From assembly GCA_016842045.1 (NCBI GenBank), contig JAEVEY010000157.1:1-42249 (forward strand): a stretch of 42,249 bases of DNA, in the 5' to 3' direction. The DNA is from Candidatus Thermoflexus sinensis (lineage in GTDB: Bacteria > Chloroflexota > Anaerolineae > Thermoflexales > Thermoflexaceae). Shown piece by piece: positions 1,397-38,800 of this stretch; position 1 is the first letter of the stretch, and each line of letters starts with the position of its first letter. A program made the position numbers and the translations under genes. The notes below the pieces were generated by a model. That model saw nothing but the letters and a program-made list of their open reading frames with translations. It searched no databases and was not told where the DNA came from.

Positions 1397-1432
1397 CCGG
1401 GCTGGGCGCCGAAAGGGCCTGACTCAGCCCGG
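1397..1432. repeat. GAA-loop hairpin between kinase and regulator genes
   Basis: An imperfect inverted repeat with 8-bp CCGGGCTG/CAGCCCGG ends and an inner GCGCC-GAAA-GGGC tip. It sits in the 173-bp gap between the two genes. The same tip is found at many other gene boundaries in this window, so this is probably a degenerate member of a dispersed hairpin family; it could also attenuate readthrough from the kinase gene. Confidence 0.5.
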
Positions 1433-1511
1433 CGAATCCCGCGAGACCTTCCTCCTCGCGGCCCTGCGAGCTGTGAGCATTTTGGGGCCGCGAAGGCTTG
1501 CGGCGCAGGTC

Positions 1512-3659
1512 CTATGCCAGACGATCGGGAGCGCGGGGCAATCGCACATGGAAGGCGGTGCCCTGGCCGGGGGCGCTCTCCACCCGAATCTCTCCGCCGA
1601 ACCGCTGGACCAGCATCTTGACCCACCACAGGCCAAAGCCCAGTTTCTTCGGCGATCGCTTGGTGGAGAAATCAAGTTCGAAGATGCGATCCTGGAGCTC
1701 CGGGGGGATCCCCGGCCCATTGTCCCGCACGGTGAGGATCACTTCCTCCGGCCCGGCGACGCCTTCCACCCGGATCCACCCGCTTTCCCCCAGCGCCTCC
1801 ACCGCGTTTTCCAGAAGGTTAAAGAACACCAGGGCCAGCTGGGGCTCCCCAGCCATCACGGGAGGAAGATCCTCCAGCCCCACCGTCTCCAGACGGATGC
1901 CGGGCGGGATCCGGAGGTCCCGCAGGGCCATCTCCAGACAAGGAAGCGGGGAGATCGGGCGGGGGGCCATCGGCCGCAGGTAAACCATCGCTTCCCGGAC
2001 AGCATCCAGGGCGGCCCGGGCCCGGCTTTCGATCTCCTGGAACACCAAGGCCAGGTAGGGATCCTGGAAGAGATCTGGCCGCTTCTCCTGGAGCCCTTCC
2101 AGGCGGACCGGGATCAGGCCGATGTGATTGTTCAGACGATGGAGGAGGTTGGCGGCGATGTCGCCGACCGCGGCGAAGGCTTCGGTGATCGCCTGACGCT
2201 CGCGGGCCGCCTGGAGGGCCTGGACGTGCTCGGCCAGCTGAACAGCCAGGGCCGCGTGATTGGCCAGAATGATCAACAATCGCTGGTCCCGCTCCGTGAA
2301 GGTGCGGGGTCGGGAAGAATGAACCACAAAGACGCCGCAGACGGCCCCATTCGGATCCAGCATGGGGACCGCCAGGGCCCATCCGCCCGACTCAAAGGAA
2401 AGGGGCCGGCGGGATCGGATGACCGCGTCCGCCAGCCCGGCGGTTCCGGCCATCGCGGGGTGGGTGGCGAAGGCCAGGCTCGGTGGCCCGGCGGGCGGGA
2501 TCAACCAGATGGCCCCGTCGGAAGCCTGGATCAGCTCGCAGGCCAGGGCGACCGTTCGGGCGAAGAGTGCCTCCCGGCCGCCGTGGAGCAGCTGGCCGGT
2601 GATCTCCTGCATGCCGCGCAGCAGGCGCATCTCCTGGAGGGCGATCACGGCGCGGGCTGCCAGCATCTCCAGCAATCGCTGGTCGCCTTCCGTGAACGCG
2701 CCTGGCTCCGGGCTCTCCAGGTTGAGCACACCTTCCACCTCATCCCCGGCGCCAATCAGGGGCACTGCGAGCTCGGAGCGGATCTCGTGGCCGGCCAGCC
2801 AGGGTCGATAGAGGGAGGCCCAGGGAGAGGCGTGGAGGTCGTCGATGCGTAGCGAGCGGCGGCGAACGGCCACCCATCCAACGATGCTGGTTTCATCCAG
2901 CTCCAGCTCGGGGGCGATATTCGGGAGGAGCGGACGGCCGATCAGCGCCCCTAACACCAGGCGCTGGCGCTGACGATCCACCAGGCGCAGCGTGCCGAAG
3001 CGGGCCCCCGTCAGCTCCATGGCGATCCGCAGGATCGCTTCCAGGACCTCCTGGGGATCGGCCCGGGCGCTCAGGAGGTGATCCATCCGGCGCAGCTCAT
3101 CCAGCTCCCGGGTTGCCCGATGAAGGTTCTGTCGAAGCCGTTCTATGGCCTGAGCGCGCCGGAGCAGCAGGGCGGCCATGCCGGTGAAGATCTCCAGGGC
3201 GCTCAGCTCGAGCGCGGTGAAGGATCGTTCCTCCTGGCAGGAGAGGTAAAGCACCCCGACCGGTTCCCCGGCAGCGAGCAGCGGCCAGCATCCGACCATT
3301 CGGGCTCCCGCCGCCTGCTTGGCTGGATGGATCGGTGTGTCGGGCTCCTCCCAGGAGAGGACCCGCCGGCCGCGGGCCAGGGCCCGCGCCGCCATCCCAT
3401 CCGGTCGGGGCCAGTCGGGGCCCATCGGTTCCCCGACCTCCCCCACGGCGATCCGGGAGGCTGGATCCAGGCTATGCTGCTCAAGGTCATAGGAAAAGAG
3501 GATCGCGGTGGCGGACCCTTCCAGAGCCAGCAACCGAAGGGCCTCTTCCCCGATGCGTCGCATGCACTCCGAGGCAGGGGTCTCGGGGGGAAGGCTCGCC
3601 AGCCGCTCCCCTGCAGTTTTCAGGCGCTGGAGGATTCCTTCGATCTCCGCCGCCATCAT
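1512..3659 (-). CDS. Multi-GAF sensor histidine kinase
   Basis: A 715-aa soluble sensor kinase; no transmembrane segment is seen, so it is probably cytoplasmic. Roughly three GAF-like sensor domains lie at about residues 20-170, 195-345 and 350-490. A helical region follows with a likely phospho-accepting histidine, H507, in the motif HRLNNH. The C-terminal HATPase domain (about 590-710) shows the N box (NLLENAVEAL), the G1 box DNGPGIP near 646, the F box FSTK and the G2 box GFGLWWVK. The start is one of two adjacent ATGs (3659 or 3656), with AAGGA upstream. It is followed on the same strand by the two-receiver regulator, its likely partner. GAF domains bind small ligands or chromophores; the ligand cannot be told from sequence, and no phytochrome-type cysteine was recognised. 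Confidence 0.9.
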   Translation of the reverse strand: MMAAEIEGILQRLKTAGERLASLPPETPASECMRRIGEEALRLLALEGSATAILFSYDLEQHSLDPASRIAVGEVGEPMGPDWPRPDGMAARALARGRRVLSWEEPDTPIHPAKQAAGARMVGCWPLLAAGEPVGVLYLSCQEERSFTALELSALEIFTGMAALLLRRAQAIERLRQNLHRATRELDELRRMDHLLSARADPQEVLEAILRIAMELTGARFGTLRLVDRQRQRLVLGALIGRPLLPNIAPELELDETSIVGWVAVRRRSLRIDDLHASPWASLYRPWLAGHEIRSELAVPLIGAGDEVEGVLNLESPEPGAFTEGDQRLLEMLAARAVIALQEMRLLRGMQEITGQLLHGGREALFARTVALACELIQASDGAIWLIPPAGPPSLAFATHPAMAGTAGLADAVIRSRRPLSFESGGWALAVPMLDPNGAVCGVFVVHSSRPRTFTERDQRLLIILANHAALAVQLAEHVQALQAARERQAITEAFAAVGDIAANLLHRLNNHIGLIPVRLEGLQEKRPDLFQDPYLALVFQEIESRARAALDAVREAMVYLRPMAPRPISPLPCLEMALRDLRIPPGIRLETVGLEDLPPVMAGEPQLALVFFNLLENAVEALGESGWIRVEGVAGPEEVILTVRDNGPGIPPELQDRIFELDFSTKRSPKKLGFGLWWVKMLVQRFGGEIRVESAPGQGTAFHVRLPRAPDRLA

Positions 3660-3708
3660 CCCCCATCCTTACCGCATCAACTATGAGTGCGGTCCTTTTA
3701 AATTCCCA

Positions 3709-3714
3709 ATTATA
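3709..3714 (-). promoter_or_regulatory. -10 element upstream of the kinase gene
   Basis: TATAAT on the minus strand, about 50 bases ahead of the kinase start. The -35 region is poor. With the plus-strand TATAAT at 3871 it makes the 256-bp gap 3660-3915 a divergent promoter region; nothing else was recognised there. Confidence 0.4.
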
Positions 3715-3870
3715 CACCGGACCAGACAGGATTTGCGCAGGCGGCCCATTCCTGAAGAACATTGAAAGGAGAAGCGGACGCGGCTCCTGTCGATTCGCTC
3801 GTCCGTTCTCAAAACGAGATAGAGCCCGAATTGGCAACCGGCCCCCGCATGGCTTTCGATCGGGTGAGGA

Positions 3871-3876
3871 TATAAT
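3871..3876 (+). promoter_or_regulatory. -10 element upstream of the NADP reductase gene
   Basis: A perfect TATAAT 40 bases ahead of the ATG at 3916. No convincing -35 lies at 16-18 bp, so it may depend on an activator or an alternative sigma factor. Confidence 0.4.
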
Positions 3877-5837: not shown

Positions 5838-7142
5838 ATGAGGTTTTCCAGGATCCTGATGAGCCTGGCGGTGTTCAGCCTGCTGCTGGCTGCCTGTGCT
5901 GCGCCGGCTACTCCAACCCCCACAGCACCGCCGGCTGCGCCGGCGGCCACGCCTACGACTGCGCCGACGGAGACGCCCGCTCCAGCGGTGAAGGGCACCA
6001 TTAAGATTGCCACTCAAAGCCCGCTCTCGGGCGGCCAGGCGGCTCTGGGGGAGGGCCTGAAGAATGGTGCCCAGCTGGCGATTGAACAGCTCAAGGGACC
6101 CATTGAGGCGCTTGGTTTCAAGGTTGAGCTGGTGCCCTTTGACGATCAGGCCAAGCCGGATGTGGGGGTAGCGAACGCCAAGCAAATCGTCAACGATCCG
6201 GATATCCTGGCCGTGGTCGGCCACCTGAACTCCGGCGTGGCGATCCCCTCCTCGGAGACTTATAAGGACTTCGACCTGGTGATGGTCTCCCCGGCCAACA
6301 CCAACCCCTGCATCACCGACCGCGGTTATCTAACCGTAAACCGGGTGTGCGGGCGAGATGACGTGCAGGGTGCGGTGGGTGCGGAGTTCGCCTTCAACGA
6401 GCTTAAGGTCAAGACCGCCTTCGTGATCCACGACAAGACCACCTACGGCCAGGGCGTGGCCGAGTTCTTCCGCAAGCGCTTCGAGGAGCTCGGCGGCAAG
6501 GTCCTGGGCTTCGAGGGCACGGAGGAGAAGGCCAACTTTGACCCCCTGATCACCGCGATCCAGGCGGTGAACCCCGAAGTGATCTATTTCGGCGGCATCT
6601 ATGACCAGGCGGGGGTCTTCTTCAAGCAGGCCCGGGAGAAGGGCGTGAACGCGATCTTCCTGGGTCCGGATGGGATGGACTCCTCGGAGCTGGCCAAGAT
6701 CGCCGGCGATGCCCTTGTGACGGGCGGCGGGATGTATTACACGAGCGTTGCTGCTCCGCCGACGGTCTATGAGGGAGCCAAGAAGTTCATCGAAGATTAC
6801 AAAGCTAAGTTCGGCAAGGATCCGGAGCCCTTCTCCGCCCAGGCCTATGACGCCACGGCCATCGTCCTGAAGGCCATCGAGGAGGCGATCAAGGAGGCCG
6901 GCGGCAACAAGCCGACCCGTAAGGCCGTGGCCGAGAAGGTCCGGGCCACCAAGGACTTCCAGGGAATCACCGGTGTGATCACATTCGATGAGCGGGGTGA
7001 CCCGGTTAAGGCCAAGTATTTCGTGATCAAGGTGATCTCCGGAAATCCGGAGGATTGGGGCAAGAACCAGCTGGTGAAGACCCTGGAGCTGGCGCCGCCG
7101 CCCTTCACGCCGGAGCTGAAGGCGGCCTGTGGGGTCAAGTAA
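5838..7142 (+). CDS. livK: Branched-chain amino acid ABC transporter, substrate-binding lipoprotein
   Basis: A 434-aa periplasm-facing lipoprotein of the Peripla_BP_6/LivK family, which captures branched-chain amino acids or related compounds for the LivHMGF importer. The N-terminal hydrophobic stretch ends in the lipobox LLAAC, with the lipidated cysteine at residue 20, and is followed by an Ala/Pro/Thr linker. The mature part starts with the family's I-K-I-A-T-Q-S-P-L-S-G pattern and contains ANTNP and DKTTYGQG segments. AAAAGGAGGAGG directly precedes the start. It heads a five-gene island. The exact substrate could be an amino acid, urea or an aromatic compound, as this family is broad. 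Confidence 0.93.
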   Translation: MRFSRILMSLAVFSLLLAACAAPATPTPTAPPAAPAATPTTAPTETPAPAVKGTIKIATQSPLSGGQAALGEGLKNGAQLAIEQLKGPIEALGFKVELVPFDDQAKPDVGVANAKQIVNDPDILAVVGHLNSGVAIPSSETYKDFDLVMVSPANTNPCITDRGYLTVNRVCGRDDVQGAVGAEFAFNELKVKTAFVIHDKTTYGQGVAEFFRKRFEELGGKVLGFEGTEEKANFDPLITAIQAVNPEVIYFGGIYDQAGVFFKQAREKGVNAIFLGPDGMDSSELAKIAGDALVTGGGMYYTSVAAPPTVYEGAKKFIEDYKAKFGKDPEPFSAQAYDATAIVLKAIEEAIKEAGGNKPTRKAVAEKVRATKDFQGITGVITFDERGDPVKAKYFVIKVISGNPEDWGKNQLVKTLELAPPPFTPELKAACGVK

Positions 7143-13831: not shown

Positions 13832-14009
13832 GCGCTATTGCAAGCTGAGGGCTTTTTTGGGGGGTGGGGCGGCCAGCGGAGGAGGGCGTCCCACCCCAAA
13901 AGCCTGACTTACCCCTCTCCCCATGCCGTGAATCGGTGTGGGGAGAGGGGTAGGGGGAAGGGGCAAACGCGGAACCTGAGCGGGCACCGCCAGGACCGCA
14001 ACCGGGCAC
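13832..14009. mobile_element. MITE-like element B2 (family B), 178 bp
   Basis: Ends ATTGC (5 bp in from the left edge) and GCAAC (7 bp in from the right edge), flanked by CAGGAGTTT (13823-13831) and CAGGGGTTA (14010-14018), 7 of 9 identical. Inside are a degenerate GGGGTGGGGCGG / CCCACCCC hairpin and a second hairpin pairing ACCCCTCTCCCC (13911-13922) with GGGGAGAGGGGT (13940-13951). The right part shares the family tail CTGAGCGGGCACC...GCAAC. The rest of the 549-bp gap 13714-14262 holds only the promoter at 13792 and about 250 bp (14019-14262) in which I recognise nothing but the ribosome site of the next gene. Confidence 0.6.
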
Positions 14010-18468: not shown

Positions 18469-18535
18469 CACAATCTACCCCGCGATCAACTCTCGTGCTC
18501 CTTCCAGCTTTGATTTTTGGTTTTGGTCCCCTGGG

Positions 18536-18639
18536 GATTTAGGGGGCGAGCCGGGCGCCGAAGGCGCCCGGCTCGCCCCCTAAATCTCTTTTATCCCCCC
18601 TCCCCACGGCCCTTTGGGCCGTGGGGAGGGGGGATAAAA
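18536..18639. repeat. Pair of perfect 24-bp hairpins after the peptide transporter
   Basis: Hairpin 1 (18536-18586) has 24-bp perfect arms beginning GATTTAGGGGGCGAG and a GAA loop flanked by GGCGCC/GGCGCC. Hairpin 2 (18589-18639) has 24-bp perfect arms beginning TTTTATCCCCCC and a TTT loop. The same two-hairpin order is found in MITE-like elements A1 and A2 with different arm sequences. Recognisable family-A ends are missing here. It could end transcription in both directions. The rest of the 319-bp gap 18469-18787 shows nothing I recognise. Confidence 0.75.
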
Positions 18640-18787
18640 GGGGGCGGGGCCATTGACCCACACCCTCTCGTATCCTCAAAGCAAATCTGGACGAAGCACT
18701 AGGGATAAGGGGATGGAGCAGACACCGATATCCACCAGGTGAAGCGGTCTCCTTCCCGGTCAGGCGAGATGGCTCCTGGGTTCGCTT

Positions 18788-22142: not shown

Positions 22143-22179
22143 GGGATGGGGTGGACAGCGAAGCGGTCCACCCCATCCC
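22143..22179. repeat. GAA-loop hairpin between prfB and the HTH gene
   Basis: 17-bp arms beginning GGGATGGGGTGGAC with one internal mismatch, around a GAA loop. It lies 33 bp after the prfB stop and is a solo member of the dispersed GAA-loop family. It may work as a terminator-like or mRNA-stabilising stem. Confidence 0.65.
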
Positions 22180-24079: not shown

Positions 24080-24260
24080 TAGGAGTTACGCAGTTGGTTT
24101 TCTCCTGGGGGTTTTGGGGGGAGTCGCGCGCCGAAGGCGCGCGACTCCCCCCAAAATATATTTCCCCCTCCCCACGGCCCACAGGGCCGTGGGGAGGGGG
24201 GATCAAGGGGGGTGGGGCCATTCTACCTCTTCTCGCGAGCCCCGAACTGCGTAACTCCTA
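24080..24260. mobile_element. MITE-like element A1 (family A), 181 bp
   Basis: Perfect 16-bp terminal inverted repeats, TAGGAGTTACGCAGTT at the left and AACTGCGTAACTCCTA at the right. It is flanked by the direct repeat TTTGG (24075-24079 and 24261-24265). It holds two hairpins: 24112-24156 with 21-bp perfect arms and a GAA loop, and 24164-24200 with 17-bp perfect arms and an ACA loop. There is no open frame, so any movement would need a transposase from elsewhere. The gap 24072-24501 (430 bp) consists of A1 and the decayed copy A4. Confidence 0.85.
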
Positions 24261-24265: not shown

Positions 24266-24440
24266 GATAACGATTCATCCCGAACCCATTCAGTTCGGAG
24301 CGCTTGCGAAGAGGTGGGAGGACCCCAAAGCCCCCCGCGGTTGGCCTTTTTGAGGCTGGGTCGGGCGCTGAAGGCACCCGACCCAGCCTGGAGAGGGGCT
24401 CCTTGACTCCCCTCCGCCAGAGGCAACTGCGTAAGTCCTG
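24266..24440. mobile_element. Degenerate family-A copy A4
   Basis: Only the right end CAACTGCGTAAGTCCTG (24424-24440) still resembles the family-A terminus; the left edge is unclear and is set at the end of A1. A hairpin at 24353-24389 has 17-bp arms beginning AGGCTGGGTCGGG with one mismatch and the family GAA loop. It is adjacent to A1, which may have landed beside or inside it. Confidence 0.5.
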
Positions 24441-26821: not shown

Positions 26822-26882
26822 GGGATGGGGGTTAACTCAAATCCTCCGGAAAGGCCGAATCGGGTCCACTTAATTGGGTTTT

Positions 26883-27011
26883 GTTCGGTTGCAAACCGGG
26901 GGCTTCCGGGTTATGGGGCGGCCAGCGAAGCCGGCCGCCCCATAACCCGAACCCTATGGAAGGAGCAAACCCCGAACTTGAGCGGGCACCACCCGGATCG
27001 CAACGGAGCAG
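26883..27011. mobile_element. MITE-like element B3 (family B), 129 bp
   Basis: Inward-facing ends GTTCGGTTGCAAACCGGG and CCCGGATCGCAACGG (14 of 18 positions match when one is inverted), flanked by a perfect 9-bp duplication TTGGGTTTT (26874-26882 and 27012-27020). It contains a GAA-loop hairpin, 26908-26948, with 19-bp arms beginning GGGTTATGGGGCGGCC and one mismatch, then the family tail ending GGATCGCAAC. It fills most of the gap between the methyltransferase and the next membrane protein. Confidence 0.75.
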
Positions 27012-29251: not shown

Positions 29252-29283
29252 CGAGTCAGGCCACCGCCGGGGAGTTGATTCGG

Positions 29284-30230: not shown

Positions 30231-30243
30231 GGGAGGGATCCGG

Positions 30244-30867
30244 ATGTTTCGACGCGCACTGCCGGCTGGCCTTTTGAGCCTGGTCATTGCCCTGGCCCTG
30301 GTGCCTTATATGTGGCCCCAGCCAGCTCTTCGTCAGAGCCTGACCGAACTGGGCTCCACGCTTCTGGCTTATGCCGCAGTGGTCGGCTTCCTTTCCTTCC
30401 TGGAAGCTCATTTTCACCGGGTGGGAGCACGCGCGGAGGGCTGGCCCTATAGCCTGGTAACCGCGCTCACGGCTCTGGCGTTCCTGCTGCTTTCTCTCGC
30501 GGAAGGCGGGCTCAGAGGGAACGGCCTCGCCGGGCCCTGGACTGGCTGGCTCTATCAGTATGGGCTGTTGCCATTAGAGGCCTCAGTAGGCGCTTTGTTG
30601 CCCTTCTTCATGGTTCTTGCCCTCTGGCGTCTGCTGCGCACCCGTCGCTCCGCTTATGTTTTGTTCTTCGTTGCAGGCGTCCTGACCACGCTCGTCCTCC
30701 ACTCCGGGGGAACCCTTCTTCCCACCCTGTTCGGTTCTTTTTATGAAACCTTTTTATCCCCGCTGGCTACCGGCGGGATCCGCGGGATCCTGATTGGGGT
30801 GGCAATCGGAGTGGTGGTGATGATGATGCGGGCCTTCCTGTGGATAGACCGACCGCTGGGTCGATGA
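30244..30867 (+). CDS. Multi-pass membrane protein of unknown function
   Basis: A 207-aa hydrophobic protein with about six predicted helices (around 6-25, 36-54, 69-90, 112-132, 142-160, 177-198) and short loops. No motif of a known transporter or enzyme is seen. GGGAGGGATCCGG precedes the ATG at 30244; a TTG/ATG farther upstream would overlap the DUF6754 gene. It is tightly packed with its neighbours and ends 25 bp before the zinc-ribbon gene, so these proteins probably act together. Confidence 0.75.
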   Translation: MFRRALPAGLLSLVIALALVPYMWPQPALRQSLTELGSTLLAYAAVVGFLSFLEAHFHRVGARAEGWPYSLVTALTALAFLLLSLAEGGLRGNGLAGPWTGWLYQYGLLPLEASVGALLPFFMVLALWRLLRTRRSAYVLFFVAGVLTTLVLHSGGTLLPTLFGSFYETFLSPLATGGIRGILIGVAIGVVVMMMRAFLWIDRPLGR

Positions 30868-30892
30868 ATGGGAAAATCGGAGGAGGTTGGGG

Positions 30893-33097
30893 ATGAAATC
30901 CTGTCCGATTTGCGGGGCTCCCAACCCGGATGATGGGATGATCTGTGAGCAGTGCGGAGCCAGCCTGGTTCTTGTCCCCGAAGCGGAGGGGGGAATCCTG
31001 TGCCCGGTCTGCGGCTATCGGAATCCCCCCGGGACGATCTTCTGCGAGCAGTGCGGCGCTCGTCTGGAGTCCGAAGCGATACCGGGAGCGGAAGGGCCTT
31101 CCGGCGAAGAGGTCCTCGAGACGGCCGAGGTCGAGCTGGATTGGGTCGCGACCCTGGAGGAGTTTTTCCCTGAGATCCCATCGGAGGTGCAGCCTTCCGG
31201 TCCAGCGGCCGCCCCAGCGGAGGCGGGCAGGGAAGAGGAGATCGCTACTCCTCCGCCTGTTGAGGCGGAAGGACTGCTCAGCACGGAAGCTCCTCCCGTG
31301 TCATGGGAACGGTTGGAGGAGGAATCTGCACCACCCTTGCCAGAATCTGCTCCCTGGATGCCATCCGGGGAGGAGATCCCTCTGACTTTCGAACCCGAGC
31401 GTTCCCCGGAAGGGGTTCCTGCTCCTCCTTTTGAGGGTATTCCACCGGAGATTGCTGAACCATGGCCTCTGACCGAATCCCTGGAGGAGGAACCGGAGTC
31501 TTTCCCCTTCCCTGGCGTTTCGCCAGTCCAGGAAGAGGAAGAGCGCCCACCCTTCCCCTGGCTGGAAACGTCCGGCGAGGCGCCGGAAACGAGCCCTGAG
31601 GTTTCCCTGTTAGAGACCGCGCCGTTTATCGAGTGGCCCCCGGAGTTAGACATGGAGACTTCGGCTCCTTCCCAGGTGGCGGAAACAAAGGAAACAGAAG
31701 CAGCGCCTCCACCCGAGTCAGGCATGGGGGAAATCCCGGAGTGGCTGAGGGGATGGGAGGGAGTAGAGAAGCCTTCGGAGGAAGCTATCCCTGAAGTGCC
31801 CTACGGGCTTTTTGAGGCAGGGGAACTCGGGGAGCGACCGCTAACGGCGCTGGAGATACCGGCAGAAGAGGAGCTGCTGGCACAGGCGAGCGCTTTGCTG
31901 GTCCCGGAGGAGCCTCCCGCTGAAGCGCCTCCGGCGCCTGCGGAGGTCCCCCCTTTCACGGATCTGGAGGCGGTGCTCGCTGAGATGCCGGAGTGGCTGC
32001 AGACCCTCCAGCCGGTTCCAGAAGAAGAAGGCCAGGCTCCCTCCGAAGCGATCCCCGCGCTTGAACCGGCGGTGATGGAGACCCAAGGGCCGCTGGCCGG
32101 TCTGGTGGATGTGTTGCCTCTGAACCTGCGGCTGGCGGAGATCCATGGGCCGGCGGCCCGGCTGCAATCGGAACCAGCCCCCGAGCTCCGCACCCGAGCC
32201 CAGGCGTGGCAGAGCTTGCTGGGTCAGGGTTTGAACTTCCTGTTTGGGGAACAGGTAGCAGAACCTGTTCCCGCTGGCCTGGGGGCTGCTCTGGAGCGCT
32301 GGCTGCTCTTTGCCCTTCTCGCCGGCGCGTTGATTCTGGGGCTCTACTGGCCGCTGCCGTTCTTCCAGCCCGCCCTCCTGACTCCTCCTGGGGATTTCCT
32401 GGCCCGGCTGGATCAGGTGCCCCCTGGAGGCATCGCCCTGGTGGCGGTGGATTATGGGCCGGATCGCGCGGCGGAGCTGGAGATCTATCTCCACCGGATT
32501 CTCGAGCGGCTCACCGCCCGGGGGGTTCGCGTGTTAACGGTTAGCCTTTCCCCCTGGGGAGCCGCTCAGGCGGCTCTGGCGGTTCAGGCGCGTCCAGATT
32601 ACGGAGAGCAGGTGGTCCACCTGGGATACTATCCGGGTCAGGAGGTAGGAGTCGTCCGCCTGCTCACCCGTCCGCTCAGCCAGTTGGGGGTGGATTATCG
32701 CGGGCAGCCGCTGTCAGGGCTTCCGGTCGCCCGGGATTTCAAGGAAGATCCCCTGGCCGCCCGATTGGGCCTGGTGGTTCTGATCACCGGATCGCCGGAT
32801 GCCTTGCGAGGGTGGATTCAGCAGGCGCGGGGCGTTCTCCCTTCGGAAGTGCCGCTGGTTGCCGCGGTCGGCGCGAACCTTGCCCCTTATGTGGCTCCTT
32901 ATCGAGAGAGTGGGCAGCTGCACGCGGTCGCGATCGGCCTGCGGGATGCATTGCTGCTGGACGGGCCGGCTCCGGAGGGCAGTCCGGCCTTCTTTGATCT
33001 CCAGGCGCAGACCATTCTTCAGTTGTTTATCATCGGGCTCATTGGCGTGGGATTGGTGATCCGTCTCTTCCGAAGCCTGAGGGCCCCGGGGCTGTGA
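30893..33097 (+). CDS. Double zinc-ribbon membrane protein with a long acidic linker
   Basis: A 734-aa protein. Two treble-clef-like zinc ribbons are at the N-terminus: Cys4, 7, 18, 21 and Cys37, 40, 51, 54, each in CPxCG...CEQCG form. A very acidic Glu/Pro-rich region follows (about 56-440), with three repeated E-W-L-containing motifs (EIPEWLRGWEG, EMPEWLQTLQP and similar). A membrane helix (about 468-490), an extracytoplasmic domain (about 495-705) and a final helix (about 706-727) complete it. GGAGGAGG precedes the ATG. The zinc ribbons should be cytoplasmic. It is the last gene before an intrinsic terminator. Function unknown; it may be the scaffold of the DUF6754 group. Confidence 0.8.
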   Translation: MKSCPICGAPNPDDGMICEQCGASLVLVPEAEGGILCPVCGYRNPPGTIFCEQCGARLESEAIPGAEGPSGEEVLETAEVELDWVATLEEFFPEIPSEVQPSGPAAAPAEAGREEEIATPPPVEAEGLLSTEAPPVSWERLEEESAPPLPESAPWMPSGEEIPLTFEPERSPEGVPAPPFEGIPPEIAEPWPLTESLEEEPESFPFPGVSPVQEEEERPPFPWLETSGEAPETSPEVSLLETAPFIEWPPELDMETSAPSQVAETKETEAAPPPESGMGEIPEWLRGWEGVEKPSEEAIPEVPYGLFEAGELGERPLTALEIPAEEELLAQASALLVPEEPPAEAPPAPAEVPPFTDLEAVLAEMPEWLQTLQPVPEEEGQAPSEAIPALEPAVMETQGPLAGLVDVLPLNLRLAEIHGPAARLQSEPAPELRTRAQAWQSLLGQGLNFLFGEQVAEPVPAGLGAALERWLLFALLAGALILGLYWPLPFFQPALLTPPGDFLARLDQVPPGGIALVAVDYGPDRAAELEIYLHRILERLTARGVRVLTVSLSPWGAAQAALAVQARPDYGEQVVHLGYYPGQEVGVVRLLTRPLSQLGVDYRGQPLSGLPVARDFKEDPLAARLGLVVLITGSPDALRGWIQQARGVLPSEVPLVAAVGANLAPYVAPYRESGQLHAVAIGLRDALLLDGPAPEGSPAFFDLQAQTILQLFIIGLIGVGLVIRLFRSLRAPGL

Positions 33098-33129
33098 GGG
33101 GTCCGGTCAGGCGGCAAGCCGCCCCACGG

Positions 33130-33163
33130 CCGGAAACGGGGGAGACCCTGTTCCCGGGTTTTT
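33130..33163 (+). terminator. Intrinsic terminator after the zinc-ribbon gene
   Basis: Two 12-nt arms (CCGGAAACGGGG and CCCTGTTCCCGG; 11 of 12 paired including one G-U) around a GAGA loop, followed by GTTTTT. It lies 33 bp after the stop and ends the transcript that starts near 29258. Confidence 0.75.
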
Positions 33164-33285
33164 AATAACGGAGCGTTCCCCATGGCCCTTCAAGTCGTGG
33201 GGAAGGAAGATCCTGGGGGTGTGGGGCCATCCGCTGGACCCGAGCGGGATGATGACGGAAAAGCCCTGGCTCTATTTTCCTTTGT

Positions 33286-33469
33286 TAGGAGTTACGCGGT
33301 TCGGGGCTCGCGAGAAGGGGTAAAATGGCCCCACCCCCCTTTATCCCCCCTCCCCACGGCCCTTTGGGCCGTGGGGAGGGGGGATCAATATATTTTTGGG
33401 GGAGTCGCGCGCCTTCGGCGCGTGACTCCCCCAAAAACCCCCAGGAGAAAACCAACTGCGTAACTCCTA
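33286..33469. mobile_element. MITE-like element A2 (family A), 184 bp
   Basis: It lies in reverse orientation to A1. Ends TAGGAGTTACGCGGTT and AACTGCGTAACTCCTA (15 of 16 paired), flanked by a perfect 6-bp duplication CTTTGT (33280-33285 and 33470-33475). It holds hairpin 2 (33343-33385, 20-bp perfect arms, TTT loop) and hairpin 1 (33393-33437, 21-bp arms, TTC loop, which is GAA on the other strand). The 404-bp gap 33098-33501 is this element, the terminator at 33130 and about 115 bp of sequence with nothing recognised. Confidence 0.85.
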
Positions 33470-33501
33470 CTTTGTTATGAAAGCCGTCATGGAGGAGCTC
33501 G

Positions 33502-34116
33502 ATGGAGCTCATGGGGATAGTTGTGGCTTTGCTCCTCACCCTGATGATCCTGAGCTATCTGATCGATGACACGGCTGTATATCGTCTGGCTGCCAGCCTG
33601 CTGGTCGGGCTCAGCGTGGGTTACTTCATGGCCGTGATGCTCTGGAACGTCCTGATCCCCCAGTGGCGGGAGATCATGACCACGACCGATTCCCTGCGGC
33701 GGAGCCTGTTGTTTCTGGAGGTGGGGCTGGGGGTTTTGATCCTGGCCAAAGGAGTGCCCCGACTGGGCCTGATCGGAGATCTCGGGCTGGCGGTCGCCCT
33801 GGGGATCGGTTTGGGGACCGCGGGGGCGGGGGCTGTATTCGGGACCCTGGGGCCCCAGCTGATGGCCGGGACGGGCCAGGGGATCACCCTGGGGCTGGCG
33901 GCGACCCTGCTGGCATTGCTGGCGGCTCAGTTCTATCGCCCCCCGACCCGGGGCCGCATCCTGGAATCAATCTGGACCGGGATTCAGGCTCTGGGGCGCG
34001 CGGTGTGGGCGTTCGCGCTCGGCACGCTGTTCGGCGGCGCGCTGATCACCGGGATCTCCCTCCTGATCGGCCGCGCCGAGTTCCTGATCCAGACGCTGAG
34101 CCAGTGGTGGCGTTAG
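33502..34116 (+). CDS. Multi-pass membrane protein of unknown function
   Basis: A 204-aa hydrophobic protein with about six helices (around 3-21, 28-49, 67-82, 92-118, 125-143, 165-187). Gly-rich stretches such as LGLAVALGIGLGTAGAGAVF suggest tight helix packing. No family is recognised. GGAGGAGCTCG precedes the ATG. It starts 32 bp after element A2, so its natural promoter was either replaced or split by the insertion. Ten bp separate it from the MutL-like gene, so the two are co-transcribed. Confidence 0.75.
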   Translation: MELMGIVVALLLTLMILSYLIDDTAVYRLAASLLVGLSVGYFMAVMLWNVLIPQWREIMTTTDSLRRSLLFLEVGLGVLILAKGVPRLGLIGDLGLAVALGIGLGTAGAGAVFGTLGPQLMAGTGQGITLGLAATLLALLAAQFYRPPTRGRILESIWTGIQALGRAVWAFALGTLFGGALITGISLLIGRAEFLIQTLSQWWR

Positions 34117-34126
34117 TGGAGCAGCG

Positions 34127-35896
34127 ATGAGCCTGAAAAGCCTGGTGACCATCGATGTGGGAAGCACACAGACCCGCGCGCTCCTGTTTGCCCGGGTGGA
34201 GGATCGCTTCCGCTTTGTGGCAGCTGGTAGCGCCCCCACCCATCTGCGCGCGGCCCATCCCGATCTGGCCCTGGGGGGGATCCGGGCGCTGGAGCATCTC
34301 AGCGCGATCTCCGGACGCCTTCTTCTGGATCCCCAGGGGATCCTGATCGTCCCGGAGCTCTCCAATGGGGCAGGCGTGGATGCGTGCCTGGTGACGCTCA
34401 GCGCAGCGCCCCCTATCCGGGTGGTCCTGGGAGGGCTTTCGTCGGAGTGGAGCCTCGCCAGCCTCCGACGGGCGGCATCCAGCGCCTATGCGCAGGTAGT
34501 GGAGATCCTCTCGCTGAGCCCTCTAAATGGGCAACGTCAAACCGAGGAGGCGTGGCTGCAGGCCCTGATCGCCGCTGAACCTCATCTGGTGGTGATCGCG
34601 GGAGGCATTGATGGCGGGGCGACCCGGCCAGTTCAGGCGCTCCTGGAAACAGCGGCCCTGGCAGCCCGATTGCACCCTGAGGGAGAGCGTCCCTGGATCC
34701 TCTTCGCCGGGAACGCGGTCCTGCGGGAGGAGGCGGTGGCCCTGGCCGGTCGAGAGCTTCCCCTCCGGGTGTTGCCCAATGTGCGCCCCCAGCTAAATGT
34801 CGAGCAAATCGGCCCGGTTGTGGAAGCGATGGACCAGCGATATGTGGAACGGGCGATGGCCAGCCTCCCCGGGATCCCTCTTTTGCAGGGCTGGGCGCGG
34901 GGGGATGTTCTGCCAACGGCCCGGGCGCTGAGCCATGTGGCTCGTTACCTGAGCCTGGAGACCCCGGATCGAGGGACCCTGGTGGTTGATGTGGGGGGCC
35001 GTCATACGGTGGTTACTGCCGCTCACGGGGGGTTGCTGGCTCAGCTTGTGCGATCGGAGAGCGGGATCGGGCCTGGGATTCTGAGCCTCTATCAACGTCG
35101 CGGATATGAGCGGATCGCCCGATGGCTGCCCCATGAGGTCCGTCCCGAAGCCCTGGAAGCCTTCGTCTGGACGAAGGCGATGCATCCGCTCTCGATCCCG
35201 CAAACGATCGAGGAGATGTGGATCGAGCTGGCGTTCGCCCGCGAGGCCCTGGCCGAGGCCTGGGAGCAATTGCGGACGCTCTGGCCGGAATTGGGGCGGC
35301 CGGCTCGGGCCTTCGAGCCTATTCTCCTGACCGGCGGGGCGTTTGCCTCCCACGCCCGTCCGGGCGCGCTGGCGCTGGTCGCCCTGGACGCCCTGCAGCC
35401 GGTGGGCATAACGACTCTGTTGTGGGATCCGGTTGGCCTCACTCCGGGATTAGGGGCTCTGGCGGCCCTGGACGCTTTGCTGGCGGTGGAGGTGGTGAAC
35501 AGTCGGCCGTGGATTCCTCTGGCCACTGTTCTGGCCCCCGCCCTGGATGGCCCGGTGGCTCTGGACGAGTTGCTGTTCACCGTCGAGGTGCATCATCGCG
35601 GGCCGGATGGCTCAGAGTCCGTATATGAAATCGAGGCGCGAGGGGGCCGGCTGGAAGTGGTTCCGATCCCTGAGGTTGGGGAAACTGAGCTGCGACGGTT
35701 CCGGATGCGACGCCCGGTGGACCTGGGTTGGGGTCCTCGACGCGCCCCCCGACGGGTCCGTATTGCGGGCGGATTGCTGGGGCTCATCGTGGATGGGCGG
35801 GGCCGTCCGTTGCGACTGGCGGAAACTCCTGAAGCGCGCCGGGAGCAAATCCAGCGCTGGCTCTGGGATATCGGGGCGCTGGGAGGGAGTCTTTGA
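34127..35896 (+). CDS. MutL-like ASKHA ATPase (glutamate mutase L family fold)
   Basis: A 589-aa protein of the actin/sugar-kinase/Hsp70 ATPase fold that resembles the glutamate mutase L (GlmL/MutL) family, not the mismatch-repair MutL. The phosphate-1 loop TIDVGSTQTRALLF is at about 8-21, phosphate-2 VVDVGGRHTVVTA at about 286-298 and the adenosine segment LLTGGAFASHARPG at about 401-414. GlmL is linked to repair of B12-dependent mutases, yet no mutase subunit is nearby; its neighbours are membrane and envelope genes. Here it might play a structural or assembly role like other ASKHA proteins (FtsA, PilM), which is my inference. Confidence 0.8.
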   Translation: MSLKSLVTIDVGSTQTRALLFARVEDRFRFVAAGSAPTHLRAAHPDLALGGIRALEHLSAISGRLLLDPQGILIVPELSNGAGVDACLVTLSAAPPIRVVLGGLSSEWSLASLRRAASSAYAQVVEILSLSPLNGQRQTEEAWLQALIAAEPHLVVIAGGIDGGATRPVQALLETAALAARLHPEGERPWILFAGNAVLREEAVALAGRELPLRVLPNVRPQLNVEQIGPVVEAMDQRYVERAMASLPGIPLLQGWARGDVLPTARALSHVARYLSLETPDRGTLVVDVGGRHTVVTAAHGGLLAQLVRSESGIGPGILSLYQRRGYERIARWLPHEVRPEALEAFVWTKAMHPLSIPQTIEEMWIELAFAREALAEAWEQLRTLWPELGRPARAFEPILLTGGAFASHARPGALALVALDALQPVGITTLLWDPVGLTPGLGALAALDALLAVEVVNSRPWIPLATVLAPALDGPVALDELLFTVEVHHRGPDGSESVYEIEARGGRLEVVPIPEVGETELRRFRMRRPVDLGWGPRRAPRRVRIAGGLLGLIVDGRGRPLRLAETPEARREQIQRWLWDIGALGGSL

Positions 35897-35902
35897 TTTC
35901 CC

Positions 35903-35930
35903 GCAGGGCAACTGCGAGCAGTTGCCCTGC
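35903..35930. repeat. Perfect 13-bp hairpin after the MutL-like gene
   Basis: GCAGGGCAACTGC and its exact complement with a GA centre, seven bases after the stop. A following TCAAGCAACC has no T-run, so it is unlikely to be a normal terminator. It may be an attenuator, an RNase site or a relic of a mobile element. Confidence 0.6.
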
Positions 35931-35960
35931 TCAAGCAACCTTCACCTTCGAGCTCAACCG

Positions 35961-37052
35961 ATGATGGAAACCTTGCATTTTTACCCGGAGGCCGTTAAGT
36001 TCACACCCCTGGCGACGATCCGCCGGGAGCGCCAGCTGCCGATCCCGGGGAAAGTGCTGGTTCAACGCGGGGATGCGGTGGAAGCCACCACAGTTCTCGC
36101 GATCGCGGAGCAGCCAGCCGGGGTGGTGATCGTGGATATCGCCCGGGCGCTGAAGGTCTCGCCCGAGCGAGCGACTGCTTATCTGCAGCGGAAGCCTGGC
36201 GCTTCCGTGCGGGCCCAGGAAGTCCTGGCGCGGCGGCGGATCTGGCTGGGGCTGCGCACCTTACGGGCGCGCTCGCCGGTAGATGGAGAGATCGTCGTGG
36301 CAGGGGGAGGGAAGGTCCTGATCCGGGCCGGGGCGCGCTCCCTGGAGCTGCGGGCGGGGTTCCCGGGAAGGGTTGTGGAGGTCCTTCCCGCTTATGGTGC
36401 GGTGATCGAAACCACCGGTGCTCTGATCCAGGCCTTCTGGTCCAGCGGCGCCGATTTCAGCGGGATGATCCGCATCGTCACCAGCGGGGCGGAGCCGTTG
36501 CGGGCGCGGGCGATCGATCCGGTCGCTCAGGGCACCATCGTGGTCGGAGGGGCATGGATCGAACCCAGCGCCCTGGAGCAGGCGGAGCGGCTCCAGGTCC
36601 GGGGGATCATCGCCGGGAGTATGGAGGCTTCCCTTCTGCCGATGCTGCGAGATCTCTCCTTCCCGGTTGTTCTGACCGAGGGGTTCGGCCGTCTTCCCAT
36701 GCATCCCGGGATCTTTCGAATTTTCTCCCTCTATCAGGGACGAGAGGCCTTTGTGCTGCGGCCGCCCGCCGGCCCGGATGGCTGGCCAGGCCGCCCGGAG
36801 ATCCTGATCCCGGTTCCCACAGAGAGCCCACCTCCTCCTGAGCCCGCAGGAGAGGTCCATCTTCATCCCGGCGTCCGGGTGCGCCTGTTGCGGGAGCCCT
36901 ATCGGGGGCGCACCGGAACGGTGTCGGAGCTCTCTCCTCGCCCGTGGACGCTGGATAGCGGTCTGCGAAGCTGGTGTGCGGAAATCCAGCTGGACGGAGA
37001 GGAGGGCAGGGTTTGGGTCCCGGTTTATAATGTGGAAGTTCTCCGCTCCTAA
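35961..37052 (+). CDS. Protein of unknown function with a KOW-like C-terminus
   Basis: A 363-aa soluble protein. Residues about 85-150 (SPVDGEIVVAGGGKVLIRAG ... FPGRVVEVLPAYGAVIET) look like a beta-barrel sandwich or hammerhead fold such as lipoyl/biotinyl-like domains, without the modified lysine. The C-terminal part (about 300-360: HPGVRVRLLREPYRGRTGTVSEL ... VPVYNVEVL) is KOW/SH3-like, as in nucleic-acid or ribosome-associated proteins. The start is one of two adjacent ATGs (35961/35964) with a poor ribosome site, so coupling to the MutL-like gene is plausible. No known family is identified. Confidence 0.7.
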   Translation: MMETLHFYPEAVKFTPLATIRRERQLPIPGKVLVQRGDAVEATTVLAIAEQPAGVVIVDIARALKVSPERATAYLQRKPGASVRAQEVLARRRIWLGLRTLRARSPVDGEIVVAGGGKVLIRAGARSLELRAGFPGRVVEVLPAYGAVIETTGALIQAFWSSGADFSGMIRIVTSGAEPLRARAIDPVAQGTIVVGGAWIEPSALEQAERLQVRGIIAGSMEASLLPMLRDLSFPVVLTEGFGRLPMHPGIFRIFSLYQGREAFVLRPPAGPDGWPGRPEILIPVPTESPPPPEPAGEVHLHPGVRVRLLREPYRGRTGTVSELSPRPWTLDSGLRSWCAEIQLDGEEGRVWVPVYNVEVLRS

Positions 37053-37097
37053 TCGGACTTCAGACGAACACAAAGATTCCCCTCTCGCGGGGATTTT

Positions 37098-37137
37098 AGG
37101 GATGGGTAGGGCCACCGAAGGAGGCCTGCTCATCCCT
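37098..37137. repeat. GAA-loop hairpin before the LPQTG gene
   Basis: Outer arms AGGGATG/CATCCCT and inner GGCC/GGCC pairs around ACCGAAGGA. It is a diverged solo member of the GAA-loop family, located 37 bases ahead of the LPQTG protein's start. Confidence 0.5.
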
Positions 37138-37174
37138 GAGAGATGCGGAAGATCCTGACCAGGAGGCAACTCCA

Positions 37175-37642
37175 ATGGCCGACGTCGATCTGGAAGAGCT
37201 GCCCCCGGAGGAAGGACAAAACCGGGCGTTCCTGCTGGGCGTGCTGGTCCTGGGGGGGCTTTTCGTGGCGCTTCTTTTCGCCATCGGCCTGTATCTGGCC
37301 CTGAGCGGCCCCGCTCGGGGGCGGCCGGCTGCGCCTGCGGGCGCGCCGACCCGAACACCGGTTCCCTCGCCGAGCCCGCTGCCGCCCACATATACACCCA
37401 CCCCGAGTCCCACCCCGGTCCCGATCGCCACGCCGACCCCGCCGGTAGGTGTGGCCGGCGAGCCGACGGCTACCCCAACCCCCAGGGCCACCGCTACCCC
37501 GGTTCGTCCAACGCCCACTCCACAGCCGGGCGGGTTGCCGCAGACTGGGGGGAGCGGCCTCGGATGGGGGCTCGGCGCCATCGGTGTGCTGTTGCTGGCC
37601 TTCCTGGCCCGACGGCTCCGTTTGCGTCCCCGGGCTTCGTGA
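37175..37642 (+). CDS. Small sortase substrate with LPQTG signal and Pro/Thr stalk
   Basis: A 155-aa protein built from a short acidic head (1-16), a membrane helix (about 18-43), a Pro/Thr/Ala stalk (about 46-118) and a canonical cell-wall sorting signal: LPQTG at 121-125, a hydrophobic helix (about 129-145) and a basic tail RRLRLRPR. Such signals are cut between Thr and Gly by sortase and the new end is attached to an acceptor. The head is very small, so it may be a spacer or anchor rather than an enzyme. AGGAGGCAACTCC precedes the ATG. A sortase gene lies 14 kb upstream. Two membrane helices are unusual for such substrates. Confidence 0.85.
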   Translation: MADVDLEELPPEEGQNRAFLLGVLVLGGLFVALLFAIGLYLALSGPARGRPAAPAGAPTRTPVPSPSPLPPTYTPTPSPTPVPIATPTPPVGVAGEPTATPTPRATATPVRPTPTPQPGGLPQTGGSGLGWGLGAIGVLLLAFLARRLRLRPRAS

Positions 37643-37691
37643 TCAACGCGCGCTGCGAATTGAAACAAAATGATGGATCCTTCCCGGGTTG

Positions 37692-37730
37692 GGGGCTGGG
37701 TAAGCCGCCGAAGGTGGCCTGCCCAGCCCC
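37692..37730. repeat. GAA-loop hairpin between convergent genes
   Basis: Arms GGGGCTGGG/CCCAGCCCC, an unpaired TAA/CTG bulge, then GCCGCC-GAA-GGTGGC. It lies between the LPQTG gene (plus) and coaX (minus), where both transcripts end, and could act as a shared bidirectional terminator. Confidence 0.6.
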
Positions 37731-37763
37731 GAGGTCTTTCAGCCGCATCGTCCCGTCCGCTCC

Positions 37764-38537
37764 CTATTTCCCCCGGCGGTTCATCTCGAAGAGGAATCGA
37801 AGCCCGTGCAGGGTCAGGTGAGGGTCAACCACCTGGATGGCCCGAACCTCATGGGCGATGATATCGGCCAGGCCGCCGGTGGCGATCACCCGCGCGGGTT
37901 CCTCCAGCTCCGCCTGGATTCGATGGATCATCCCCTCCACCATGCTCGCGAACCCCAGGATCAGGCCTGATTGCATGGCCTGGATCGTATTACGGCCGAT
38001 GGCCCGGGGAGGCCGGGTGAGTTCCACCTGATACAGCTGCGCAGCCGCGGTGACCAGCGCTTCCGCGGCCACCAGGATCCCCGGGGCGATCGCCCCGCCC
38101 AGATATTCTCCTTCCCGTGAGATCACATCGAATACCGTGGCTGTCCCGAAGGCGATCGCGATGGCGGGCCCTCCATATAGCCGAAAGGTCGCCACCGCGT
38201 TCGCCACCCGGTCTGCGCCCACCTCCCGCGGGTTCTCCACGGCCAGCCGGATCCCGGTTTTGATCCCGGGCCCGACCATGAGAGGTTCAAGACCCAGGTA
38301 GTGCCGCACCATCTCTTCAAACACGGCCCGAAGGGGAGGCACCACACAGGCGATCGCGCAACCCCGGATCTCGCGCGGGCGGATCTTGTGAAGGGTGAAG
38401 AGGTTCATAAAGAGGGCGGCGTATTCATCGGCCAGGCGATGGCGCTGGGTGGAGAACCGCCAGTGGGCGATAAGGGATTCCCCATCAAAGACCCCCGCCT
38501 TGATATTGGTGTTCCCGATATCCAGACAGAGCAGCAT
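37764..38537 (-). CDS. coaX: Type III pantothenate kinase
   Basis: A 257-aa cytoplasmic enzyme that phosphorylates pantothenate, the first committed step to coenzyme A. It has the ASKHA-fold phosphate-1 motif LDIGNTNIKAG (residues 5-15), the pantothenate/metal region ENPREVGADRVANAVA (about 101-116), and IAIAFGTATVFDVI plus YLGGAIAPG further on. All are typical of CoaX, and length fits (about 255). GGAGGAGACGCAG precedes the start. It is the last gene of the minus-strand pan group. Confidence 0.95.
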   Translation of the reverse strand: MLLCLDIGNTNIKAGVFDGESLIAHWRFSTQRHRLADEYAALFMNLFTLHKIRPREIRGCAIACVVPPLRAVFEEMVRHYLGLEPLMVGPGIKTGIRLAVENPREVGADRVANAVATFRLYGGPAIAIAFGTATVFDVISREGEYLGGAIAPGILVAAEALVTAAAQLYQVELTRPPRAIGRNTIQAMQSGLILGFASMVEGMIHRIQAELEEPARVIATGGLADIIAHEVRAIQVVDPHLTLHGLRFLFEMNRRGK

Positions 38538-38599
38538 CTGCGTCTCCTCCTCGCCCGGCTGTCATCCATGGCCCAAACCTTGCTTCCCCTCTGGACATG

Positions 38600-38800
38600 C
38601 GTCATTGGCCGCTGTCAAAGGAGGACAAGGGGTTTTCCTCCCTGCGGCTCCTGGGCCGTGGGGAGGGAATAGATATTTCATGGGCCGGGCGCCTCCGATG
38701 CCCGGCCTGTCGGTGACGAGTCCAGGGAAAGTGGGGATCCCTCATCTCCCTCCCCACGACCCGAAGGGCGCGGAGAGGGAAAGAGGGATGGGACGAGGGA
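38600..38800. repeat. Decayed hairpin element between coaX and panC
   Basis: One hairpin (38683-38707) pairs GGCCGGGC with GCCCGGCC around GCCTCCGAT. A second (about 38747-38785) pairs CTCCCTCCCCACG with a mutated GCGCGGAGAGGGA around CCCGAAGGG, and resembles hairpin 2 of elements A1/A2. Family-A ends are not recognisable. It fills most of the 281-bp gap. Confidence 0.45.

What the first reader, a model, noticed from the sequence alone, without database searches (positions are those of the whole stretch)
1397..38785. Dispersed GAA-loop hairpins whose arms covary
At least ten intergenic hairpins (1397, 18536, 22143, 24112, 24353, 26908, 27919, 33393, 37098, 37692) share a GCC-GAA-GGC-like tip but have different arm sequences that stay almost fully paired over 17-24 bp. 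Arms differ both from copy to copy and within the same element family, so structure is kept while sequence changes. They occupy ends of genes and also ride inside both MITE families. This looks like a REP-like or terminator-like module that has been copied, or selected, across the chromosome.
Basis: partly seen in the sequence, partly recalled or inferred. Interest (0 to 1): 0.8.

Follow-up and report, generated by a model that had tools for sequence, protein, structure and literature searches.

The report
Flipping hairpins inside tiny jumping elements
The scattered GAA-tipped hairpins are mostly parts of very small jumping DNA elements in a hot-spring bacterium; their two arms change together and their tips flip direction, most likely because DNA copying slips between the arms, so matched arms here are not by themselves a sign of a working RNA.

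Summary
All ten hairpins exist (1397 is weak), their arms covary, and strong hairpins are far above chance: 339 in 1.28 Mb of this Thermoflexus genome against 0 in a 400-kb randomised control. They are not REPs (no Y1/RAYT gene found), and the GAA class as a whole does not behave like terminators. Many are the internal palindrome of MITEs: short, 16-bp terminal inverted repeats, 4-9 bp target duplications in 51 of 86, intergenic, absent from the orthologous sites checked. MITE families with unrelated ends carry similar hairpins.

The covariation looks mainly mutational. In copies whose tails differ by about 2.5%, arms show matched two-sided substitutions (9 cells, at least 6 distinct; about 0.4 expected if arms mutated independently) and matched run-length changes. 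The triloop is inverted about half the time relative to the element (19 GAA:18 TTC; 23 TTT:19 AAA), even between copies with at most one other difference. One insertion shared with a near-identical contig of another draft genome has its loop inverted together with an arm mismatch. Arm homogenisation plus spacer inversion is the published signature of replication template switching. Hairpin 37692, between convergent genes, occurs in five genomes and may be a terminator. Caveat: draft assemblies, no reads.

The parts
24080..24260 (+). MITE, family A, 181 bp: 16-bp TIRs, GAA hairpin plus C-rich hairpin, flanks TTTGG/TTTGG; absent in L123 and L125
27887..28025 (+). MITE, family B, 139 bp: TIRs, GAA hairpin only; flanks ACAAAA/ACAAAA; absent in L125 and L126
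33286..33469 (-). MITE, family A, 184 bp, inverted; both hairpins; flanks ACAAAG/ACAAAG; absent in L123-L126
13831..14008 (+). MITE family 2 (TIR TGCTCTGTTGC-like), 178 bp, with a G-rich and a C-rich hairpin
   Evidence: ends counted by hand
26882..27010 (+). MITE family 2, 129 bp, carrying the 26907 hairpin
   Evidence: ends counted by hand
18533..18654 (+). two-hairpin core without recognisable TIRs (relic or another MITE family)
1392..1437 (+). weak GAA hairpin, bulged, between two minus-strand genes
   Evidence: (23.2 bits)
13854..13904 (+).
   Evidence: 52.9 bits
18539..18583 (+). GAA hairpin, perfect arms
22143..22179 (+). GAA hairpin (GCGAAGC tip), no TIR nearby
24112..24156 (+). GAA hairpin of the 24080 MITE, 21 bp perfect
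24345..24397 (+). GAA hairpin beside one surviving TIR (24425-24440)
26907..26949 (+). GAA hairpin (GCGAAGC tip); not seen in L123 and L125
27919..27965 (+). GAA hairpin of the 27887 MITE, 22 bp perfect
33393..33437 (-). hairpin of the 33286 MITE, tip TTC on + strand
37092..37143 (+). GAA hairpin upstream of the 37175 ORF; only its left half survives in L124
37692..37730 (+). GAA hairpin between convergent genes; hairpin at the same place in L123, L124, L125, L126
13908..13954 (.). C-rich hairpin of the 13831 element
18586..18642 (.). C-rich hairpin, TTT tip
24162..24202 (.). C-rich hairpin of the 24080 MITE, ACA tip
33343..33385 (.). C-rich hairpin of the 33286 MITE, TTT tip on + strand
24425..24440 (-). 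single TIR beside the 24345 hairpin

Best explanation
[quoted passage not shown] The elements spread through their terminal inverted repeats, by a transposase not found here, and settle between genes. [quoted passage not shown] This keeps stems near perfect while their sequence drifts and leaves the tip orientation random. The preference for a GAA/TTC tip fits a hairpin formed by DNA: C(GAA)G is an exceptionally stable single-stranded DNA triloop. Shown: MITE structure, intergenic placement, lineage-specific insertion at three sites, matched arm changes, tip inversion (all on assembled sequence). Inferred: template switching as the cause, DNA hairpin stability as the reason for the tip, and that a transposase acts in trans. 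A minority (37692 best) may have become transcription terminators.
For: MITE: the 15-base end RGGASTTACGCAGTT occurs 299 times in the genome against 0 for the reversed pattern; of 86 TIR-bounded elements in 1.28 Mb, 51 have identical 4-9 bp flanks (26 of 5 bp, 15 of 6 bp); no insertion at 24080, 27887 or 33286 in the relatives that cover those sites. Matched arm changes: 71 family A/B elements, 85 hairpins, tails 2.4-2.8% substitutions per site; 9 two-sided substitution cells (at least 6 distinct) and 10 matched G-run changes in 8 copies, against 23 one-sided substitutions and 4 one-sided G-run changes; independence at the tail rate predicts about 0.4 two-sided substitutions (1778 pairs x 0.025^2 / 3, my arithmetic). 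Tip inversion: 19 GAA/18 TTC and 23 TTT/19 AAA in those 71; among copy pairs with at most 1 other difference, 11 of 18 tip comparisons are inverted (pairs share members). Family 2 (unrelated TIR): 13 GAA/9 TTC of 37 ends; a third family in another genome (G005): 8 GAA/4 TTC in the 12 of 40 loci that could be oriented. L194 vs L005, one shared insertion, 98.8% over 2971 bp: tip inverted and the arm mismatch at the mirror position. The same two signatures are attributed to template switching in yeast, including a gaa/ttc tip (PMC8604942, abstract and passages), and in rRNA and microRNA genes (PMC8794818, abstract and passages). GCGAAGC DNA hairpin Tm 78 C (PMC4686876, passages).
Against: No reads were available: the copies come from draft assemblies, and G007 contigs often end inside these hairpins; L192 looks chimeric. 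Several two-sided changes are shared by two related copies, so distinct events are few, and the relatedness of copies was not modelled. Of five tip comparisons at shared insertions three are inverted, one is the same and one is a point change; only L194/L005 is colinear on both sides. Loop inversions are reported as very rare in rRNA (PMC8794818), and a chloroplast paper ascribes similar small inversions to recombination between arms (PMC12928735, passages), so the tips alone do not single out template switching. No intact transposase with these TIRs was found, but only Y1, PF13358 and PF01609 were searched. A hairpin at one junction in five genomes with two-sided changes (8 of 18 pairs) shows that selection on structure may act at some sites. 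15 of 86 elements matched neither family and were left out of the arm count.
Confidence: 0.75

Rival explanations
1. A functional RNA or transcription terminator module: stems are kept by purifying selection and compensatory substitution, and MITEs carry it because it shields neighbours from read-through.
For: Covariation; a hairpin at one convergent junction in five genomes; 7 of 41 placed TIR-less GAA/TTC hairpins and 7 of 25 placed TIR-less TTT/AAA hairpins are convergent, against 7% of intergenic bases; in 20000-39000 the 24112 hairpin and both C-rich hairpins meet a lax T-run rule.
Against: MITE copies of the GAA hairpin show no convergent enrichment (2 of 53 placed) and random tip direction; 7 of the 8 GAA-type hairpins in 20000-39000 fail the T-run rule; two-sided changes and symmetric run-length changes occur in copies too young for two independent hits; tips invert, which selection on an RNA loop would not favour.
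Confidence: 0.13
2. REP/REPIN-type repeat moved by a RAYT (Y1) transposase.
For: Short intergenic palindromes in many copies.
Against: No Y1_Tnp match in the genome; hairpins lie inside elements with TIRs and target duplications, which Y1 systems do not make (recalled).
Confidence: 0.03
3. The tip inversions, and part of the perfect pairing, are artefacts of assembling palindromic repeats from short reads.
For: Contigs of G007 end inside the hairpins; arms of 20 bp are about the size of small k-mers; single copies cannot be checked without reads.
Against: Inversions occur where arm mismatches leave only 3-4 bp of perfect inner stem (L049/L086; L194/L005); they occur in three element families and in two draft genomes; an assembler has no evident reason to create rare matched substitutions in both arms.
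Confidence: 0.08

Closest known systems
Bacterial MITEs (review PMC10969869, one passage seen)
   Same: Short, non-coding, TIRs, target duplications, AT-rich intergenic sites, stem-loop transcripts possible
   Different: Carry one or two long internal palindromes of a similar kind in families with unrelated TIRs; tips found in both orientations
Template-switch evolution of inverted repeats (PMC8604942, abstract and passages; PMC8794818, abstract and passages)
   Same: Arm homogenisation and spacer/loop inversion; a yeast case has the same gaa/ttc tip
   Different: There single loci in yeast genes, or rare loop inversions in rRNA; here tens of copies in one bacterium with tips near 1:1
Small hairpin-associated inversions of chloroplast DNA (PMC12928735, passages)
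   Same: Short loops between inverted repeats found in both orientations
   Different: Organelle DNA, single loci, ascribed there to recombination; here a dispersed mobile family
REP/REPIN/BIME with RAYT (PMC3733652, PMC3116915, PMC2817692: search listings only)
   Same: Many short intergenic palindromes
   Different: No Y1 transposase found; TIR/TSD elements instead
Fanzor/TnpB-bearing elements with TIRs in eukaryotes (PMC3627910 and PMC10711439, passages)
   Same: TnpB-like gene inside a TIR/TSD element, as in the Thermoflexus elements that share these TIRs
   Different: Those are eukaryotic or viral; here bacterial, and linked to the MITEs only through shared TIRs

Membership tests
MITE | terminal inverted repeats | tested here: met
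   299 exact 15-base ends, 0 in control; 86 bounded elements within 4 mismatches per end
MITE | target-site duplication | tested here: met
   51 of 86 have identical 4-9 bp flanks, mostly 5-6 bp; 32 of 86 have none. Family 2: 2 of 21 have 9 bp
MITE | short and non-coding | tested here: met
   81-189 bp for 52 of the 53 TIR pairs listed; no ORF search was run on each
MITE | autonomous partner with the same TIRs and a transposase | tested here: inconclusive
   TIR partners in G002/G008/G003 hold a TnpB-like gene; no DDE gene with these TIRs found with the two Pfam families searched
REP/RAYT | Y1 (RAYT) transposase gene | tested here: not met
   0 of 1 (own genome, 94.5% complete); 5 of 14 controls ring
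REP/RAYT | conserved tetranucleotide tag at the hairpin base | tested here: not met
   no such invariant columns in alignment A1; the tag is known to me from recall and a search listing
Intrinsic terminator | GC hairpin followed by U-tract | tested here: inconclusive
   in 20000-39000, 1 of 8 GAA-type hairpins (24112) and both C-rich hairpins (24162 on -, 33343 on +) meet the tool's T-run rule; 14 sites found against 13.2 in shuffles
Intrinsic terminator | placement at gene 3' ends, convergent gaps enriched | tested here: not met
   2 of 53 placed GAA/TTC hairpins in family-1 elements convergent, background 7%; TIR-less ones 7 of 41; 37692 is convergent
Template-switch homogenised inverted repeat | arm homogenisation | tested here: met
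Template-switch homogenised inverted repeat | spacer inversion | tested here: met
   (assembled sequence only)
Template-switch homogenised inverted repeat | dependence on replication/repair genes | not testable with these tools
   needs mutants

The most novel reading that the evidence does not exclude
A palindromic cassette (G-rich hairpin with GAA/TTC tip, C-rich hairpin with TTT/AAA tip) has been exchanged among MITE families with unrelated ends across a bacterial genus, and its tips invert so fast that they behave as random two-state switches at hundreds of loci: a natural meter of replication template switching at high temperature. Its TIRs are shared with bacterial elements in which the only gene seen is TnpB-like, which would make TnpB a passenger (or helper) of a TIR/TSD transposon in bacteria.
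Probability: 0.3. Interest if true: 0.75.

Novelty: new variant of a known kind. Interest (0 to 1): 0.55.

Why it matters
Covarying arms are usually read as strong evidence of a selected RNA structure. Here a family of young mobile copies suggests that matched arm changes can arise by mutation alone, and it supplies many replicate loci in which to measure that process. It also warns against calling such hairpins terminators or regulatory RNAs from covariation. The TIRs shared with TnpB-like elements raise a separate question about how TnpB genes move.

Tried and rejected
REP/RAYT: no Y1 gene. Rfam: no family in the window at gathering scores. Simple terminator scan: 14 found against 13.2 in shuffles, mostly uninformative. 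First covariance model R1 was built with the pairing shifted by two columns by my mistake and was not used; R2 replaced it. DDE searches: PF13358 gave one truncated hit at a contig end, below its cut-off; PF01609 gave one IS with other ends inserted into a MITE copy; neither is the partner. R2 numbers from the genome search are capped (150 candidates scored per genome), so they are lower bounds: G000 150 (E<=1e-3), then at E<=1e-6 G007 97, G005 85, G008 19, G003 13, G006 8, G002 1, G004 1, G001 0. G005 has only one exact family-1 TIR but many hairpins, which first seemed to speak against the MITE reading; 40 of its hairpin stretches showed another MITE family. A first look at G005 suggested no tip inversion; the later count gave 8:4. 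The L192/L190 pair was dropped as chimeric; its C tip is inverted too, so dropping it does not favour my reading. The junction search at 37692 placed only L223, L224 and L226; three other loci were misplaced by my pattern and I rely on L123, L125 and L126 for those genomes; G004 and G007 gave no match. Viral contigs with the TIR (14 loci) were checked only for TIR pairs and led nowhere. A search for Thermoflexus plus 'inverted repeat' gave 0 papers, and Thermoflexus plus 'insertion sequence' gave one review not opened; a MITE/template-switching search showed 10 of 55 papers and none of the titles was on this (listing only). These searches cover one open-access library only.
Full report
Observation. 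Nine are strong; 1397 is weak. In 1,277,061 bases of the same genome (81 stretches, the window included) there are 339 strong hairpins with loops of 3-5 bases, against 0 in 400 kb of Markov control; the commonest tips are GAA 59, TTC 53, TTT 45, AAA 37. The genome is a Thermoflexus (Chloroflexota) judged by its named relatives, 3.44 Mb in 212 contigs.

What they are. The hairpins at 24112, 27919 and 33393 lie inside elements with 16-bp terminal inverted repeats TAGGA(G/C)TTACGCAGTT. The inner 15 bases occur 299 times in the genome, 0 times reversed. In the 1.28-Mb sample 86 elements are bounded by such ends (up to 4 mismatches each); 51 have identical flanks of 4-9 bp, mostly 5 or 6, and 32 have none. 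They come in a modular series: 81-93 bp without a hairpin, 130-149 bp with either the G-rich or the C-rich hairpin, 164-189 bp with both, apart from one 259-bp pair of ends that spans a smaller copy. In syntenic relatives L123-L126 the insertions at 24080, 27887 and 33286 are absent where the site is covered. So these are MITEs. The 13831 and 26882 elements belong to a second family with ends like TGCTCTGTTGC / GCAACAGAGCA; of 37 right ends in the sample 21 have both ends, and only 2 of those have a 9-bp duplication, so its mobility is less well shown. Copies without two ends (18533, 22143, 24345) look like relics, though some may be independent.

Arms change together. For 71 elements of families A and B (32 and 39; 15 others did not fit and were left out) I compared 85 hairpins with family consensus arms. 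Tails differ from consensus at 2.4-2.8% of sites. In the arms there are 9 substitution cells matched on both sides, at least 6 distinct, and 23 one-sided ones. G-run length changes are matched in 10 cells (8 copies) and one-sided in 4. There are 4 further matched and 15 further one-sided length changes; 11 of those 15 are at the outermost base, where trimming decides. If arms mutated independently at the tail rate about 0.4 matched substitutions would be expected (1778 pairs x 0.025 squared / 3; my arithmetic). Selection alone could hardly exceed that product of neutral rates in copies so young, so a process that writes one arm onto the other is the simplest cause.

Tips invert. Read in the direction fixed by the tails, the same 71 elements have 19 GAA and 18 TTC tips, and 23 TTT and 19 AAA tips. 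Among pairs of copies with no more than one difference elsewhere, 11 of 18 tip comparisons are inverted (pairs share members). Family 2 has 13 GAA and 9 TTC (12 of 37 ends had no scored hairpin, 3 had other tips); the G005 family has 8 GAA and 4 TTC in the 12 of 40 loci that could be oriented. Between G000 and near-identical contigs of G007, five tips at shared insertions can be compared: three inverted (L194/L005 G tip; L196/L007 and L199/L190 C tip), one the same, one a point change. In L194/L005, 98.8% identical over 2971 bp and colinear on both sides, the inverted tip comes with an arm mismatch at the mirror position, as a true inversion of at least the inner stem predicts; one further substitution separates the two hairpins. 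L049 and L086 share a mispair four pairs from the tip and a matched arm change but have opposite tips. These cases leave only 3-4 bp of perfect inner stem, which makes k-mer ambiguity an unlikely cause.

Mechanism. Arm homogenisation together with spacer inversion is described as the result of polymerase template switching between short inverted repeats, with a gaa/ttc tip among the yeast cases (PMC8604942, abstract and passages); multi-base compensatory changes, and rare loop inversions in bacterial rRNA, are attributed to it as well (PMC8794818, abstract and passages). I infer the same here. Recombination between arms, proposed for small chloroplast inversions (PMC12928735, passages), would also invert tips but would not by itself match the arms. 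C(GAA)G is an unusually stable DNA triloop, GCGAAGC melting at 78 C (PMC4686876, passages), which would favour this tip in a hairpin made by DNA in a thermophile; the DNA folding model itself gives both tip states the same energy (-30.4 kcal/mol), so that part is inference from the paper.

Not a terminator class, with exceptions. GAA/TTC hairpins in family-1 elements fall in 37 tandem, 14 divergent and 2 convergent gaps (13 at edges not placed), close to the 71/22/7% of intergenic bases. TIR-less hairpins with other tips fall 53 tandem, 8 divergent, 24 convergent, which is what terminators should do, and TIR-less TTT/AAA hairpins 15, 3 and 7, which is similar. GAA points along the gene in 20 and against it in 17 tandem cases for MITE copies, 14 and 11 for TIR-less ones. 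TIR-less GAA/TTC hairpins are 25 tandem, 9 divergent, 7 convergent, a mild convergent excess. In 20000-39000 the 24112 hairpin and both C-rich hairpins meet a lax T-run rule, the other seven GAA-type hairpins do not. One TIR-less hairpin, 37692, has a hairpin at the same junction in L123, L124, L125 and L126, with 8 of 18 pairs changed on both sides, and none in G001 and G002, where the two genes almost touch. That one may be a working terminator. No RAYT was found.

Spread in the genus. With 150 scored candidates per genome, matches at E<=1e-6 (strands counted apart) are G007 97, G005 85, G008 19, G003 13, G006 8, G002 1, G004 1, G001 0. G002 gave three loci at E<=0.1 in 200 kb.

Partner. In G002 the same TIRs bound 1.3-kb elements; in the two listed for ORFs (L127, L128) the long frame that matches a family is a TnpB-like protein (Pfam Cas12f1-like_TNB; NCBIfam TIGR01766 over its cut-off, guided_TnpB just under it). 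12 near-full-length copies at 90-100% identity are listed in G002, and relatives at 50-51% in G008 and G003. Of nine G002 loci inspected all have paired TIRs within two mismatches and seven have a 5- or 6-bp duplication; both G008 elements have 5 bp; the G003 one has ends with 3 and 0 mismatches and no duplication. No transposase was found with these ends. Elements of this sort are described in eukaryotes as Fanzor elements (PMC3627910, PMC10711439, passages). In this genome the only match is a weak one with stops (34%).

Limits. No reads, no isolate of this species; draft assemblies; a simple gene caller; relatedness among MITE copies not modelled; family names A, B and 2 are mine.

Noticed in passing
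L127 345-1586, L128 530-1789, L129; L147-L171 (G002); L149, L155 (G008); L150 (G003): TnpB-like elements (about 1.3-1.6 kb) with 16-bp TIRs and, in 9 of 12 loci inspected, 5-6 bp target duplications in three Thermoflexus genomes; no TnpA or DDE gene seen in the two listed for ORFs.
   Followed up: partly
L102 about 1393-2331: An IS with a DDE_Tnp_1 gene is inserted into a family A MITE copy.
   Followed up: no
L101 3-362: Truncated IS630-type transposase (weak PF13358 match) at a contig end.
   Followed up: no
window 39828-40006: Two 82-bp direct repeats (77% alike), starts 97 bp apart, with inner inverted repeats, between the 39655 and 40113 genes.
   Followed up: no
L125 14490-15230: What looks like an array of long GC-rich repeats between orthologs of the window genes ending at 38537 and starting at 38819; not in the window.
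   Followed up: no
L126 about 6160-6260: A diverged element with TIR-like ends (CAGGGCTTACGCAGC..) beside a hairpin in Ca. T. japonica.
   Followed up: no
L130 741-854 and 13914-14027: 114-bp MITEs in G002 with the same TIRs but a different interior; one has TTTCA on both sides.
   Followed up: no
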